A stretch of DNA of 10,575 nt from Bacteroidales bacterium. Lineage in GTDB: Bacteria; Bacteroidota; Bacteroidia; Bacteroidales; UBA932. The notes below the pieces were generated by a model that was given only the letters and a program-made list of their open reading frames with translations, ran no database searches and was not told the DNA's origin. Made by a program: the position numbers and the translations under genes. The stretch covers positions 1 through 10,575 of the forward strand of contig JAGABD010000035.1 of the NCBI GenBank assembly GCA_017614795.1, written 5' to 3'. This document shows positions 132 to 10,437 of this stretch, piece by piece; position 1 is the first letter of the stretch; each line of letters begins with the position of its first letter.

Positions 132-542
132 CTATTTACACCCAAGCCCGTAGGTGCAGAGGTTCTGCATATGATAGAGCTTCATCATATTCTCCGCAAA
201 GGGTCCGTCCAGCGAAATGGTCTTGGAGAGGCTGTCCACCACCGCGGCGGCCCAGTCGCTCTCGGTGTCGCCTCCGGCATAGGGCATAACCTTGGCATAA
301 TCGCAAATGGCGTCCTTGAATTGCGAAACGATGAGCCGCTGTGTCTCGCGGGTCATACCGTAGATGTCTCCCGCCTCCTGCTCCGACGTTCGCTCTTGTT
401 CCGTCGCTCGCTCTTGCTCCAGCATCTGCTCCTGCTTCTGCGAATGCGCGTTTGCCAATCTGGACCAGATGGAGGAAATGCCACGGCCCTCGCAGCACCA
501 GGCCAGGGCCGTCAGCAATAAAAGGAATGCCAACTTTTTCAT
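132..542 (-). CDS. Small secreted protein of unknown function with a Glu/Gln-rich stretch
   Basis: This is a 136-residue protein whose first 17 or so residues form a signal peptide (KK followed by LAFLLLLTALAW and two cysteines). The cysteine context has Trp just before it and is not a good lipobox, so ordinary export is as likely as a lipoprotein. Residues 33-58 are polar and helical, with an imperfect six-residue repeat (EQERAT, EQERTS, EQEAGD). The C-terminal half is more globular and ends in a pair of cysteines (LCTYGLGCK). I do not recognise a family. It is the last gene of a minus-strand operon, 11 bp after the preceding gene, and no clear terminator follows. Confidence 0.75.
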   Translation of the reverse strand: MKKLAFLLLLTALAWCCEGRGISSIWSRLANAHSQKQEQMLEQERATEQERTSEQEAGDIYGMTRETQRLIVSQFKDAICDYAKVMPYAGGDTESDWAAAVVDSLSKTISLDGPFAENMMKLYHMQNLCTYGLGCK

Positions 543-4547: not shown

Positions 4548-4960
4548 TTCTCAAAGCAAGATACTTGCAGATTCTCCTGGCGTTGGCGCTTTCCGCTCCG
4601 GTGGCTTTCGGGCAAAGCGTCAAGAACGCTGCGTACCGGACCGTCGCTCACATAAAGTCCGACGGGACGATTCAGGATTCCGGGTACAGGACCATCGGCC
4701 ATATCAAGTCCGACGGCACCGTCCAGGACGCCGGCTACAGGACTATCGGACACCTGAAGGATGACGGCACCGTGCAGGATGCCGGTTACAGGACCGTAGG
4801 GCACATCAAATCCGACGGGACCGTGCAGGACGCAGGCTACCGCACCATCGGTCACGTCAAGTCCGACGGCACAGTCCAGGACTCCGGCTACCGCACCATC
4901 GGCCACGCCGACGGCATCCCCCTCAAATGGGCGGCGTTCTATTTCTTTTTCAGTAACTGA
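4544..4960 (+). CDS. Secreted 5-fold beta-flower-type repeat protein
   Basis: A 138-residue exported protein. Residues 1-23 are a signal peptide with a good cleavage site (Ala-Phe-Gly before Gln24). Five 17-residue repeats follow at 30-46, 47-63, 64-80, 81-97 and 98-114, with consensus GYRTIGHIKSDGTVQDA, then a partial sixth copy (115-121) and a hydrophobic tail (IPLKWAAFYFFF). Repeats of an x-x-IG-x-I-x-x-DGT-V-x-(D/N) type with a terminal WAA-aromatic tail match what I know as the 5-fold beta-flower proteins of Bacteroidetes, in which each repeat supplies one petal of a small beta structure. The function of that family is unknown to me. The ATG overlaps the TGA of the preceding gene by 4 bases, so translation is probably coupled, an odd pairing of a cytosolic regulator-like protein with an exported one. 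Confidence 0.88.
   Translation: MILKARYLQILLALALSAPVAFGQSVKNAAYRTVAHIKSDGTIQDSGYRTIGHIKSDGTVQDAGYRTIGHLKDDGTVQDAGYRTVGHIKSDGTVQDAGYRTIGHVKSDGTVQDSGYRTIGHADGIPLKWAAFYFFFSN
4631..4906 (+). repeat. 51-bp coding tandem repeat of the beta-flower protein
   Basis: Five full 51-bp units and a 21-bp partial unit encode the 17-residue repeat. Units differ mainly at third codon positions (for example ggcaccgtccagga, ggcaccgtgcagga and gggaccgtgcagga), so the array is old enough to have diverged at the DNA level while protein sequence was kept. Confidence 0.9.
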
Positions 4961-4995: not shown

Positions 4996-5030
4996 CCGTG
5001 CTCAACCTCGCAAAAATAGTGAGGTTGGGA
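4996..5030 (-). repeat. Palindromic repeat, copy 1, between the convergent beta-flower and feoAB genes
   Basis: CAACCTC (5003-5009) and GAGGTTG (5021-5027) form a hairpin, extendable by one G-C and one wobble pair towards the loop. The stretch at 4996-5015 is identical to the reverse complement of 7668-7682 plus its loop bases, so this copy is inverted relative to those upstream of feoAB. It lacks a T run but could still slow transcription from both sides. It fills the 104-bp convergent gap. Confidence 0.75.
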
Positions 5031-7593: not shown

Positions 7594-7626
7594 TGAGCCC
7601 AACCTCACTATTTTTGCGAGGTTAGG
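7594..7626 (+). repeat. Palindromic repeat, copy 2, upstream of feoAB
   Basis: AACCTC (7601-7606) pairs with GAGGTT (7618-7623), extended outward by GCC/GGC across one C-A mismatch. The loop ACTATTTTTGC is the exact reverse complement of the loop of copy 1 (GCAAAAATAGT). It lies 51 bp before copy 3 in the same orientation. Confidence 0.7.
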
Positions 7627-7645: not shown

Positions 7646-7682
7646 GAGCTCAACCTCAATAATTTTGCGAGGTTGAGCACGG
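7646..7682 (+). repeat. Palindromic repeat, copy 3, upstream of feoAB
   Basis: GCTCAACCTC (7648-7657) and GAGGTTGAGC (7669-7678) form a perfect 10-bp stem with an 11-base AT-rich loop. Together with copy 2 it forms a direct pair of about 34-bp units with a 51-bp period; the spacers (aaaacggcccaaaatga) are AT-rich. Its right half and flank (CGAGGTTGAGCACGG) reappear inverted at 4996-5010. Confidence 0.75.
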
Positions 7683-7852
7683 TGTACTGGCCAATTTCGT
7701 TCCCCCCGGCAGTTATTCGAGAGGGGGACGACAGTGACGCGGAGGGAGGGACGGCTGCGACGCGGAGAGGGGGACGACAGCGATGCGGAAGAAGGGACTG
7801 CAGGGACGTGGAGGGAGGAACGGCTGCGATGCGGAGGGAGGATCGGCAGGGA
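7683..7852. other. Gene-free stretch between feoAB and the acyltransferase
   Basis: The gap between the feoAB start (7473) and the acyltransferase stop (7853) is 379 bp. It holds the feoAB promoter, two palindromes (7594-7682) and, from 7723, a tandem repeat. Open frames on either strand here consist of repeat translation (Arg/Gly/Asp-rich) and are not credible genes. I see no terminator for the minus-strand lipid operon other than the palindromes. Confidence 0.6.
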
Positions 7853-7860
7853 CTACTGCA
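7723..7860. repeat. Degenerate tandem repeat, 23-bp period, about six units
   Basis: Units start at 7723, 7746, 7769, 7792, 7815 and 7838. GGGGGACGACAG occurs at 7723-7734 and again at 7769-7780 (46 bp, two periods). ACGGCTGCGAnGCGGAG occurs at 7751-7767 and 7820-7836 (69 bp, three periods). A 23-bp period does not preserve a reading frame. The last unit runs 8 bp into the 3' end of the acyltransferase gene. Confidence 0.75.
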
Positions 7861-8884
7861 GGGAATAAACCGCCGAACGGAGAAGGGTGCGAAGTTCCGC
7901 CAGCGAGCCGGCAGCGGCGATTTGGTCGGGGGTGATGAGGGGACCGGCGACGAAACGGAGTTCGCGTCCGCTCTTGTTCAGAAGTTCGGCGGGCAGGCGG
8001 GTGAGGCGGAGACGCCAGTCGATCAGGCCAAGGGAGTAGAAGAAGGATGAGTTCAGCGCGGCGTTGTACACCGGCAGCACCGGCACGCCCGCCCGCTTTA
8101 TGAACTTTACGATGCTCATCTGCCACTCGCGGTCGCGGACACGGGGTTCGCGAAGAGTTTGCCGGTCGCGGCCGGGAGTGACGGCGGGAAGGCCCGCAAT
8201 GACGCCATCGTCAGGCCCGACCCGATCGGGCATCTCAACAACCGGCCGTCGGCCCAGTTCCAGATTAGACACCGCTCCGGCGGGGAAGAGACCGAGACAG
8301 CCGCCTCGACGCAGATGCTCCATCGCCGCATACACTCCGTTGATGCTTTCTGCCGTGGGGGCCGTTCGCACCGCTCCGGTCGGGGTCACCGAAATGAAGC
8401 ACGACGCCGCGGCCCGCATCCGCATAAGCAGGGCGTTCACCATAAACTTGTACCGCGGTTCCGCTGCAGATTCTCCTTGCATAGTGCCCATAGCGCTCCC
8501 GAAAAGATCTATCAATCCCAGCCCGTCGAGAGCCCCGAGCGTATGGTTGCTTACGGTGATGAACGGCCCGGCGGGCAGATTCTCCCGAAGCCAGTCCACC
8601 GCCTCGTCGCGGGGCATCCCGTTCAGAGTCATCCTGTAGCCGGACTCCTCGATGGCCCGCCTGCAGAACTCTACGCCGACGGCGCCCTTCTCGGCGGAAC
8701 CGTCCCAGCCGCAGATATTCTCGTAGAACGCCTCGACCTTGTCAATCGAAAACATCCATTTCAGCACCTTGGCAAAACCGGTCCCGAGACTACCCCGGAA
8801 CAGCGGCGACAACTCCGCCATCTCTTCGAGAGGCAGAAGGGCCCTCCGTACGGAAGGGTCGGCTTTTGGAGCTTTCAGGGCCAT
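7853..8884 (-). CDS. PlsC-like lipid acyltransferase carrying an in-frame repeat-like insertion
   Basis: A 343-residue protein of the PlsC/lysophospholipid acyltransferase superfamily, transferring an acyl chain to a lyso-lipid at the membrane. The catalytic motif is NHTLGALDG (113-121, His114 and Asp120), with five residues between His and Asp instead of four; I recall this spacing from Bacteroidetes acyltransferases related to ornithine- and glycine-lipid O-acyltransferases. The FPxG motif is at 200-203 (FPAGAVS), DREWQ at 251-255 and VPVLPVYN at 267-274. Between NLEL (207-210) and LREPRVRDREWQ lie about 33 residues (212-244) rich in Gly, Pro, Asp and Arg whose DNA looks like an interspersed repeat; relatives as I remember them have no such stretch. 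It is the last gene of the operon, 6 bp after the CDP-alcohol phosphatidyltransferase. The exact substrate is unknown. Confidence 0.82.
   Translation of the reverse strand: MALKAPKADPSVRRALLPLEEMAELSPLFRGSLGTGFAKVLKWMFSIDKVEAFYENICGWDGSAEKGAVGVEFCRRAIEESGYRMTLNGMPRDEAVDWLRENLPAGPFITVSNHTLGALDGLGLIDLFGSAMGTMQGESAAEPRYKFMVNALLMRMRAAASCFISVTPTGAVRTAPTAESINGVYAAMEHLRRGGCLGLFPAGAVSNLELGRRPVVEMPDRVGPDDGVIAGLPAVTPGRDRQTLREPRVRDREWQMSIVKFIKRAGVPVLPVYNAALNSSFFYSLGLIDWRLRLTRLPAELLNKSGRELRFVAGPLITPDQIAAAGSLAELRTLLRSAVYSLQ
8153..8251 (-). repeat. Repeat-like palindromic insertion inside the acyltransferase gene
   Basis: Minus-strand bases 8236-8209 contain a hairpin GCCCGA-TCGGG-TCGGGC and align with 10409-10436 at about 22 of 28 positions (shared GAGAT, CCGnTCGGGTCGG and TGACG). 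A second hairpin-type unit follows at 8204-8174 (CGTCATTGCGGG, then CCCGCCGTCAC). The whole segment is a multiple of three bases and keeps the frame open. Boundaries are approximate and drawn from the protein motifs on either side. Confidence 0.55.
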
Positions 8885-10278: not shown

Positions 10279-10394
10279 TTTGGGCGAGGTCTGTTATTTA
10301 GGTGGACACCTCGCCCATCCAATATGCCACAGAAGCGCCTGTAGTGCCATTCGCCCGGGCGAGGTCCAGGGCATTTCAGCAGACCTCGCCCAAA
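10279..10394. repeat. 116-bp element with four alternating GGGCGAGGT arms
   Basis: The outer ends, TTTGGGCGAGGTCTG (10279-10293) and its exact reverse complement (10380-10394), form a 15-bp perfect terminal inverted repeat. Inside are two further arms: ACCTCGCCCA at 10308-10317 and GGGCGAGGTC at 10357-10366. Each neighbouring pair forms its own 10-bp hairpin (10281-10290 with 10308-10317, and 10357-10366 with 10382-10391). The design is like paired REP units (BIME) or a very small inverted-repeat element. It contains no gene. Confidence 0.75.
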
Positions 10395-10408: not shown

Positions 10409-10437
10409 GAGATTGCCGGTCGGGTCGGCAATGACGG
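10409..10437 (+). repeat. Palindromic interspersed repeat (GAGATTGCCGG type)
   Basis: ATTGCCG (10412-10418) and CGGCAAT (10426-10432) form a 7-bp stem with a 7-base loop, flanked by GAG and GACGGG. The pattern is that of a common interspersed repeat of GC-rich bacteria, and it aligns with minus-strand 8236-8209 inside the acyltransferase gene. Confidence 0.65.

What the first reader, a model, noticed from the sequence alone, without database searches (positions are those of the whole stretch)
8153..8251. Interspersed-repeat-like DNA inserted in frame inside the lipid acyltransferase
About 33 extra residues (212-244) separate two conserved motifs of the enzyme. Their DNA forms two palindromic units, and one aligns with the intergenic repeat at 10409-10436 (about 22 of 28 bases). 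Proteins carrying a palindromic repeat in frame are known from Rickettsia (RPE); a similar case in Bacteroidales would be new to me. The loop lies on the side of the FPxG motif, so the enzyme may still be active.
Basis: partly seen in the sequence, partly recalled or inferred. Interest (0 to 1): 0.75.

Follow-up and report, generated by a model that had tools for sequence, protein, structure and literature searches.

The report
Palindromic repeats inside bacterial enzyme genes
A short hairpin-forming DNA repeat sits in reading frame inside a loop of a lipid-making enzyme of an uncultured Bacteroidales bacterium, and relatives carry the same repeat family inside many ordinary enzyme genes, so a repeat type usually found between genes appears here to be read as protein.

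Summary
A covariance model made only from relatives' repeats finds two strong copies in the window: 10409-10436 (intergenic, E 4.3e-8) and 8209-8236 (inside the acyltransferase gene, E 5.4e-8), plus a decayed one at 8153-8183 (E 0.027). Three orthologues (71-77% identical) lack the segment; P0004 carries there the exact translation of a consensus unit.

The repeat has the tag and stem of CGTC-tagged REPs, the superfamily that holds Rickettsia RPE-4 and RPE-6. In the GTDB family of Bacteroidales UBA2861, 27 of 299 genomes match the first pattern (two only in a chance gene); a stricter pattern over the order gives 1 of 295. Stem positions covary.

In some relatives the copies lie mostly in genes. 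In 33 ORFs of 10 genomes a copy sits in frame between Pfam-matched residues: TruB, TruA, IspG, MnmA, MutY, RmlB, carbamate kinase and others. In G186 and G287 copies look intergenic.

In-frame CGTC-REPs are published, so this is a variant of a known kind, new for its host lineage and its intragenic habit. The window's own genome is not held; the mover is unknown.

The parts
7853..8884 (-). Lipid acyltransferase (PlsC-like), 343 aa, carrying the insert
   Evidence: PF19576 and PF01553; best fold match of the model is PlsC 5kym_A, Foldseek E 2.8e-4, TM 0.37/0.51
8150..8242 (-). Extra coding segment, residues 215-245, absent from P0005-P0007; its first residues (VVEMPD) may be ancestral
   Evidence: Alignment A1, loops listed; pLDDT < 50 at residues 217-247; 26 of 31 residues identical to P0002 versus 298 of 312 outside
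8209..8236 (+). CGTC-REP unit 1 (5-nt loop); its complement is coding sequence
   Evidence: Covariance model R1, 33.3 bits, E 5.4e-8
8153..8183 (-). CGTC-REP unit 2, decayed, head-to-head with unit 1
   Evidence: R1 13.3 bits, E 0.027; at this place P0003 and P0004 read VIAGSDRQSLR, whose first nine residues are the exact translation of a consensus unit
8184..8204 (-). Possible third, truncated unit between the two (begins GTCATTGCGGG)
   Evidence: Inference by eye; R1 gives only E 6.7 for 8186-8204
10409..10436 (-). Intergenic CGTC-REP copy of the same family
   Evidence: R1 33.7 bits, E 4.3e-8

Best explanation
The segment is a head-to-head pair of short palindromes, CGTC-tagged REP units, that inserted in frame into a permissive loop of the acyltransferase between the FPxG motif and the EPxVRDRxWQ motif. 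The family is a non-autonomous repeat that has multiplied in one family of Bacteroidales. Its consensus units have no stop in 4 or 5 of the 6 frames, so an insertion whose length keeps the frame adds a peptide of about 9 residues per unit (VIAGxDRQS, VMPGxDRAS, SCPAPTGHL, DARSEPGMT and so on). Insertions that fall in loops or linkers are tolerated, and the palindrome then decays under little constraint. Shown: sequence, family, covarying stem, absence in near orthologues, in-frame copies in many other conserved genes, low model confidence of the loop. Inferred: that the enzyme still works, that copies moved as DNA by an unknown enzyme acting in trans, that the segment is translated and near neutral.
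For: Window: two R1 hits at E 4.3e-8 and 5.4e-8. Orthologues: P0005-P0007 lack the segment, P0002 has it, and P0004 has VIAGSDRQS, the frame translation of GTCATTGCCGGCTCCGACCGGCAATCTC, a unit found as DNA in G085 and G287. Family: 27 of 299 genomes of the GTDB family match, with 1 control hit in all; two of the 27 (G092, G294) matched there only in superoxide dismutase genes, which I hold to be chance. 291 copies of the 6-nt-loop pattern in 25 of 26 genomes, control 3; 778 copies of the 5-nt-loop pattern, the window's subtype, in 24 of 27 genomes, control 0. In the order 1 of 295 genomes matches the 6-nt-loop pattern at up to 1 mismatch; at that stringency the cut listing already shows 14 of the family's genomes. 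Stem: first open position GC 20, UA 13, CG 8, AU 1, none unpaired; covariation 0.434 versus 0.116 in shuffles; the same picture in 205 copies. Genes: 90 ORFs with copies were scanned with Pfam (80 outside G287, 10 in G287); 57 of 90 have a family over its cut-off, 0 of the 10 in G287; in 33 of them, from 10 genomes, a copy lies between matched residues (tallied by hand from those tables, by genome). PDB alignments leave the residues with the unit unmatched: TruA query 170..206 versus 167..175 of 1dj0, IspG 258..328 versus 256..257 of 3noy, TruB 160..253 versus 137..168 of 1sgv; carbamate kinase and MnmA show a gap at the unit.
Against: The window's own genome is not held, so its copy number is unknown. 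On the tree the carriers P0004 and P0003+P0001+P0002 are separated by the non-carriers P0005 and P0006 (one of the forks between them weakly supported), so at least two changes are needed: two gains at one site, or gain and loss. The loop varies in length for other reasons in other clades (runs such as PGAG). Part of unit 1 (EMPD) coincides with a residue pattern of outgroups. No DNA of P0002-P0004 was at hand. In RmlB the unit does not lengthen the loop against the best PDB match. In G186 and G287 copies do not lie in supported genes. No mover was found: no R1 hit in 10 Y1-transposase loci, of which only 5 come from genomes with copies.
Confidence: 0.9

Rival explanations
1. The loop is simply a hypervariable, GC-rich, low-complexity part of the enzyme that grows by replication slippage; the likeness to the intergenic repeat is chance.
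For: Other clades show runs such as PGAG and SASA in the same loop; GC-rich coding DNA often forms short inverted repeats (general knowledge).
Against: E 5.4e-8 for the coding unit with a model made from other genomes; exact consensus peptide in P0004; the same repeat in frame in 33 other ORFs between Pfam-matched residues.
Confidence: 0.05
2. The insert has been kept because it is useful: it modifies membrane binding, partner binding or activity of the acyltransferase, or its mRNA hairpin regulates expression.
For: The insert is retained in P0001, P0002 and P0003. Some genes carry a unit at the same site in several genomes: RmlB in G115, G251 and G267 in one orientation and in G104 in the other.
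Against: It changes faster than the rest (26 of 31 versus 298 of 312 identical between P0001 and P0002), is absent in P0005-P0007, and unrelated proteins carry units in different frames and on either strand, which argues against one shared peptide function.
Confidence: 0.12
3. The segment arose by recombination between REP units and a half-palindrome already present in the gene (ATGCCCGAC of ancestral MPD codons), not by transposition.
For: The outgroup L016 has ATGCCCGACGGG at the homologous place, matching one arm of the unit.
Against: P0004 carries the peptide of a full unit without the MPD codons. Whether other intragenic sites had such an arm before was not tested.
Confidence: 0.1

Closest known systems
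CGTC-tagged REPs (Di Nocera, De Gregorio, Rocco 2013, PMC3733652; abstract, sections 6, 14, 15, 16 and passages seen)
   Same: CGTC (TGTC) tag, 8-bp stem with A-T pairs first and second, 5-nt loop, short tail, head-to-head pairs, units inside genes, no transposase found nearby
   Different: Tail is CTC (72) or CCC (60), CCA in 2 of 205 copies; a second subtype with a 6-nt loop; copies lie mostly inside ORFs in some genomes; one genome, G287, has mainly tail-to-tail pairs at 13-14 nt; host is a Bacteroidales family
Rickettsia palindromic elements RPE-4 and RPE-6 (Ogata et al. 2002, known to me only through passages of PMC3733652; the paper itself is not held)
   Same: Palindromes inserted in frame inside genes of probably functional proteins; tRNA pseudouridine synthase B is a target in both (in R. 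conorii by RPE-1, according to that paper)
   Different: Host is a Bacteroidales family, not an obligate intracellular alphaproteobacterium; sequence likeness to RPE not tested
GTAG-REPs with RAYT transposases (abstract and section 16 of PMC3733652)
   Same: Short palindromes, often in pairs, high copy number
   Different: Tag is CGTC; no unit at the 10 Y1-transposase loci examined, 5 of them in genomes with copies; G287, with 78 hits of one pattern, has no PF01797 match at E 1e-3

Membership tests
CGTC-tagged REP superfamily | Unpaired CGTC (or TGTC, CCTC) at one end | tested here: met
   The base before GTC is C in 164, T in 26, A in 13, G in 2 of 205 copies; that base was not in the search pattern. 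The three best window hits read CGTC
CGTC-tagged REP superfamily | Stem of 8 or 9 bp, A-T pairs in first and second position | tested here: met
   8 bp, 98.8% of cells paired, changes on both sides in 4 of 8 pairs (42 sequences chosen from 74). The first two pairs were fixed in the search pattern, so their constancy is partly by construction; in window unit 1 one of them is broken
CGTC-tagged REP superfamily | Loop of 4 or 5 nt | tested here: met
   The two good window copies and 778 copies have 5-nt loops; a further 291 copies have 6 nt, outside the usual range
CGTC-tagged REP superfamily | Tail mostly CCA | tested here: not met
   Tail CTC 72, CCC 60, CTG 28, CTT 19, CTA 15, CCA 2 of 205. 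The paper says 'most of which fit', so this is typical rather than strictly defining
CGTC-tagged REP superfamily | Head-to-head pairs predominate, tail-to-tail rare | tested here: met
   Outside G287: 34 HH, 4 TT, 8 HT pairs within 60 nt in the fetched loci. G287 alone departs: 23 HH, 42 TT (34 of them at 13-14 nt), 10 HT
CGTC-tagged REP superfamily | No associated transposase | tested here: inconclusive
   No R1 hit in 10 Y1 loci, but only 5 of these lie in genomes with copies; G287 and G292 have no PF01797 match. Other transposase classes not examined
Protein-coding palindromic elements (RPE-like) | In frame inside genes of conserved, probably functional proteins | tested here: met
   33 ORFs with a copy between Pfam-matched residues; expression not testable here
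Rickettsia RPE families proper | Sequence homology to RPE families | not tested
GTAG-REP / RAYT REPtron | GTAG tag | tested here: not met
   Tag is CGTC

The most novel reading that the evidence does not exclude
In part of one Bacteroidales family a REP family has turned the 'extragenic' rule round. Its consensus is stop-free in most frames and its copies lie mainly inside genes: of the 6-nt-loop copies, 23 of 23 examined in G267 (25 by the pattern) and 15 of 19 examined in G270 (52 by the pattern) lie inside ORFs of 150 aa or more, and 10 and 7 of these ORFs have Pfam matches on both sides. It keeps supplying in-frame, probably disordered inserts to essential enzymes, tRNA-modification enzymes among them, with some loops (RmlB, this acyltransferase) hit repeatedly. 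The element would be selected to be translatable: selfish DNA that survives by being harmless protein.
Probability: 0.42. Interest if true: 0.8.

Novelty: new variant of a known kind. Interest (0 to 1): 0.6.

Why it matters
In-frame palindromic elements are best known from Rickettsia, obligate intracellular bacteria, where they are easily put down to relaxed selection (my reading). A large, lineage-restricted set in Bacteroidales, with covarying stems, two loop subtypes and 33 clear insertions between conserved parts of enzymes, lets one ask directly how REP units move, which protein loops accept them, and whether new disordered segments of bacterial proteins come from mobile DNA. It also warns annotators that peptides such as VIAGxDRQS or VMPGxDRAS in these proteins are repeat-derived.

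Tried and rejected
Tried without result: the window's own genome (not held); near DNA match in plasmids (none); genome-contig scan with P0001 alone (none); Rfam on the window (none up to E 1); two 6-nt-loop unit patterns in viral contigs (no exact match), so no sign of phage carriage for those two patterns; R1 in 10 Y1-transposase loci and in L001 (none up to E 1). The nearest named genome, G001, has no match to the 6-nt-loop patterns; the 5-nt-loop pattern was not run on it, nor on the order.

Considered and rejected: superoxide dismutase hits L043 and L055: the matching peptide looks to me like the enzyme's own motif (recalled, not from a call) and both have 3 mismatches; not counted as insertions. 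ORFs without a Pfam match in GC-rich DNA (for example L204-L207, L194, L160, and all 10 of G287) were not counted as genes. ORFs whose best Pfam stretches lie on one side of the copy only, or where the printed stretches leave it open (L197, L198, L200, L212, L267, L191, L229, L243, L153, L240, L246, L248, L253, L257-L259, L041, L159, L162, L164, L165, L239, L242, L244) were left out of the 33.

Mended on checking: I first took tail-to-tail pairs with a 14-nt spacer as a mark of the whole family; one search shows that 34 of the 35 such pairs come from G287, and outside G287 head-to-head pairs predominate as published. The probability of the novel case is a little lower for that reason.

Results against or weakening: G186 0 of 16, G289 2 of 11 and G287 11 of 73 copies internal to ORFs of 150 aa or more, so the intragenic habit is not general. 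In the G104 sample of the 5-nt-loop subtype, taken in list order, 20 of 25 copies were internal to such ORFs, 9 of the 16 ORFs had a Pfam family over its cut-off and in 3 (L271, L275, L277) the copy was clearly between matched residues. The counts 57 of 90, 33, and 9 of 16 were made by hand from the printed tables. Alignment A3 holds 42 of the 74 sequences picked; broken or near-duplicate ones were left out by me, so its pairing figure is favourable; one search gives all 205 copies with full context.

Full report
WHAT WAS CLAIMED AND WHAT IS THERE. The finding says that about 33 residues inside an acyltransferase are an interspersed repeat inserted in frame. The gene (8884..7853, minus strand) is a PlsC-like acyltransferase by Pfam and by fold search of the model (5kym, E 2.8e-4). 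In the 35 rows of alignment A1 the stretch between FPxGAVS and EPx(V/I)RDR varies from 9 to 65 residues. P0001, the window protein, has 39 there; P0005, P0006 and P0007 (71-77% identical) have 9; P0002 (92%) has 39, nearly the same. The AlphaFold model is moderate (mean pLDDT 68.9) and leaves residues 217-247 below 50, as well as four other stretches.

IT IS MORE THAN CHANCE. From units of other genomes only I built a covariance model. On the window with filters off it finds the intergenic copy 10409-10436 (E 4.3e-8), the coding unit 8209-8236 (E 5.4e-8) and a decayed unit 8153-8183 (E 0.027); the other 13 rows are E 1.1 or more. The two coding units are head to head, with a gap that may hold a third fragment. 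P0004 (78%) has at the same place just VIAGSDRQSLR, whose first nine residues are the frame translation of GTCATTGCCGGCTCCGACCGGCAATCTC, a unit that occurs as DNA in G085 and G287. In a distant clade (47-49% identical) seven proteins of A1 (P0017, P0028, P0034, P0044, P0061, P0079, P0085) have VIPGPTGNP in the same loop and five more (P0024, P0046, P0063, P0073, P0086) have one or two residues different. That would be the translation of a 5-nt-loop unit, but I had no DNA of these proteins, so it stays an inference.

A CAUTION ON THE BORDERS. Outgroups read RPVVxMPDG or similar at the start of the segment (P0090; L016), so VVEMPD may be ancestral although it also forms one arm of unit 1. On a tree built without the loop columns the carriers P0004 and P0003+P0001+P0002 are separated by the non-carriers P0005 and P0006, so two changes at least are needed: two gains at one site, or gain and loss. 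Between P0001 and P0002 the insert is 26 of 31 identical, the rest 298 of 312, as expected of a weakly constrained insert.

THE REPEAT FAMILY. The nearest named genome is Bacteroidales bacterium UBA2861 (handle G001), which has no match to the 6-nt-loop patterns. In its GTDB family 27 of 299 genomes match GTCATTGCCGNNNNNGACCGGCAATCTC with up to 3 mismatches, and the reversed control pattern hits once in all; two of the 27 (G092, G294) matched there only in superoxide dismutase genes, probably by chance. A wider pattern (up to 2 mismatches), run on these genomes other than G287, gives 291 copies in 25 of 26, control 3. Its 5-nt-loop form, to which the good window copies belong, gives 778 copies in 24 of 27 genomes, control 0. 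In a sample of the whole order 1 of 295 genomes matches the 6-nt-loop pattern at up to 1 mismatch; the cut listing shows at least 14 family genomes at that stringency. The wider patterns left two stem positions open, and there the pairs change together: GC 88, TA 83, CG 24, AT 3 at the first and CG 105, GC 89 at the second among 205 copies (a 42-sequence test with shuffles). The base before GTC is C in 164 of 205. This is the CGTC tag of Di Nocera et al. 2013 (PMC3733652; outline and abstract, sections 6, 14, 15, 16 and passages seen), whose superfamily includes Rickettsia RPE-4 and RPE-6.

COPIES INSIDE GENES. In fetched loci I examined 238 unique 6-nt-loop copies; 115 lie in an ORF of at least 150 aa with at least 20 codons on each side. 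Because GC-rich DNA has spurious ORFs, I scanned 90 ORFs that hold copies with Pfam (a few of those from G287 are shorter or have the copy near an end): 57 have a family over its cut-off, none of the 10 from G287. In 33 ORFs of 10 genomes a copy lies between matched residues: IspG, RmlB (3 genomes), NtrC-type regulators (2), M20 peptidase, TruA, TruB, GH97, an endonuclease/phosphatase, MetH, MiaB, RimO, GH94, MutY, an aminotransferase, urocanase (2), A2M-like (2), GH3 (2), RsmE, CbiJ-CbiD (2), ketoacyl synthases (2), HemW, a hybrid sensor, MnmA, an NRPS, carbamate kinase. Gene names beyond the Pfam or PDB names are my reading. PDB alignments leave the residues with the unit unmatched in TruB, IspG (61) and TruA (63), in each case as part of a longer unmatched stretch, and show a gap at the unit in carbamate kinase (95) and MnmA (96); in RmlB (62) the unit takes the place of a loop of similar length. 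A list-order sample of the 5-nt-loop subtype in G104 gave 20 of 25 copies internal to such ORFs, 9 of 16 ORFs with Pfam support, 3 with the copy clearly between matched residues. RmlB carries a unit at the same site in G115, G251 and G267 in one orientation and in G104 in the other. Genomes differ: 23 of 23 examined copies internal in G267 and 15 of 19 in G270, but 0 of 16 in G186, 2 of 11 in G289, and 11 of 73 in G287 without Pfam support.

ANATOMY. Stem 8 bp, loop 5 or 6 nt, tail CTC (72) or CCC (60) in 205 copies, CCA in 2. Pairs within 60 nt: outside G287 34 head-to-head, 4 tail-to-tail, 8 head-to-tail, as published for CGTC families; in G287 23, 42 and 10, with 34 tail-to-tail pairs at 13-14 nt. 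Of five consensus units translated, the two with a 6-nt loop have a stop in one of six frames, the three with a 5-nt loop in one or two.

HOW IT WORKS, MOST LIKELY. A DNA-level mover acting in trans inserts units or pairs; which enzyme is unknown. No unit lies in the 10 Y1-transposase loci examined, but only 5 of these come from genomes with copies; G287, rich in copies, has no PF01797 match. The paper states that CGTC repeats lack a dedicated transposase. Insertions that keep the frame and fall in loops survive; the peptide decays. That the acyltransferase is active is inferred from its intact motifs and open frame, not shown.

KNOWN OR NEW. In-frame REP units, CGTC ones too, are published for Rickettsia and several other bacteria, and tRNA pseudouridine synthase B is a published target in four species (section 15 of PMC3733652); it is hit again here. 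None of the titles and abstract starts listed by searches treats such insertions in Bacteroidales (several lists were cut; the library lacks most subscription journals; of PMC5771137 I saw passages only, whose palindromic mentions concern CRISPR). I rate it a new variant of a known kind, of more than usual interest because of the scale and the intragenic habit in some genomes.

Noticed in passing
window 5003-5027, 7600-7624, 7651-7675: A second palindromic repeat (CAACCTCACTATTTTTGCGAGGTTG and its reverse complement), three copies on both sides of the FeoAB gene; not found in the fetched relative loci at up to 4 mismatches.
   Followed up: partly
window 10281-10392: Inverted repeat TGGGCGAGGTCTG at 10281-10293 and its reverse complement at 10380-10392, next to the intergenic REP copy.
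   Followed up: partly
window 7725-7875: Tandem repeats of 23 nt directly downstream of the acyltransferase stop (family D2).
   Followed up: no
window 4618-4957: 51-nt tandem repeats (family D1) coding for 17-residue units such as GYRTIGHIKSDGTVQDA in a small protein.
   Followed up: no
acyltransferase residues about 132-144: A second length-variable stretch (GSAMGTMQGESAAEP against GHARDD in relatives), longer still in P0002; it does not look like the REP units.
   Followed up: partly
P0024, P0028, P0034, P0044, P0061, P0073, P0079, P0085, P0086: The same acyltransferase loop has grown by PGAG-type runs in a distant clade; these rows hold VIPGPTGNP or a form one residue different near the end of the loop, which would be the translation of a 5-nt-loop unit.
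   Followed up: partly
L053 and L201: Two tRNA pseudouridine synthases, TruB (G085) and TruA (G267), carry units; TruB is also a published REP target in four species (PMC3733652, section 15), so some genes may be hit recurrently across phyla.
   Followed up: partly
loci of G287 (for example L108, L111): G287 alone has many tail-to-tail unit pairs with a 13-14-nt spacer and two different stems (34 of 35 such pairs).
   Followed up: partly
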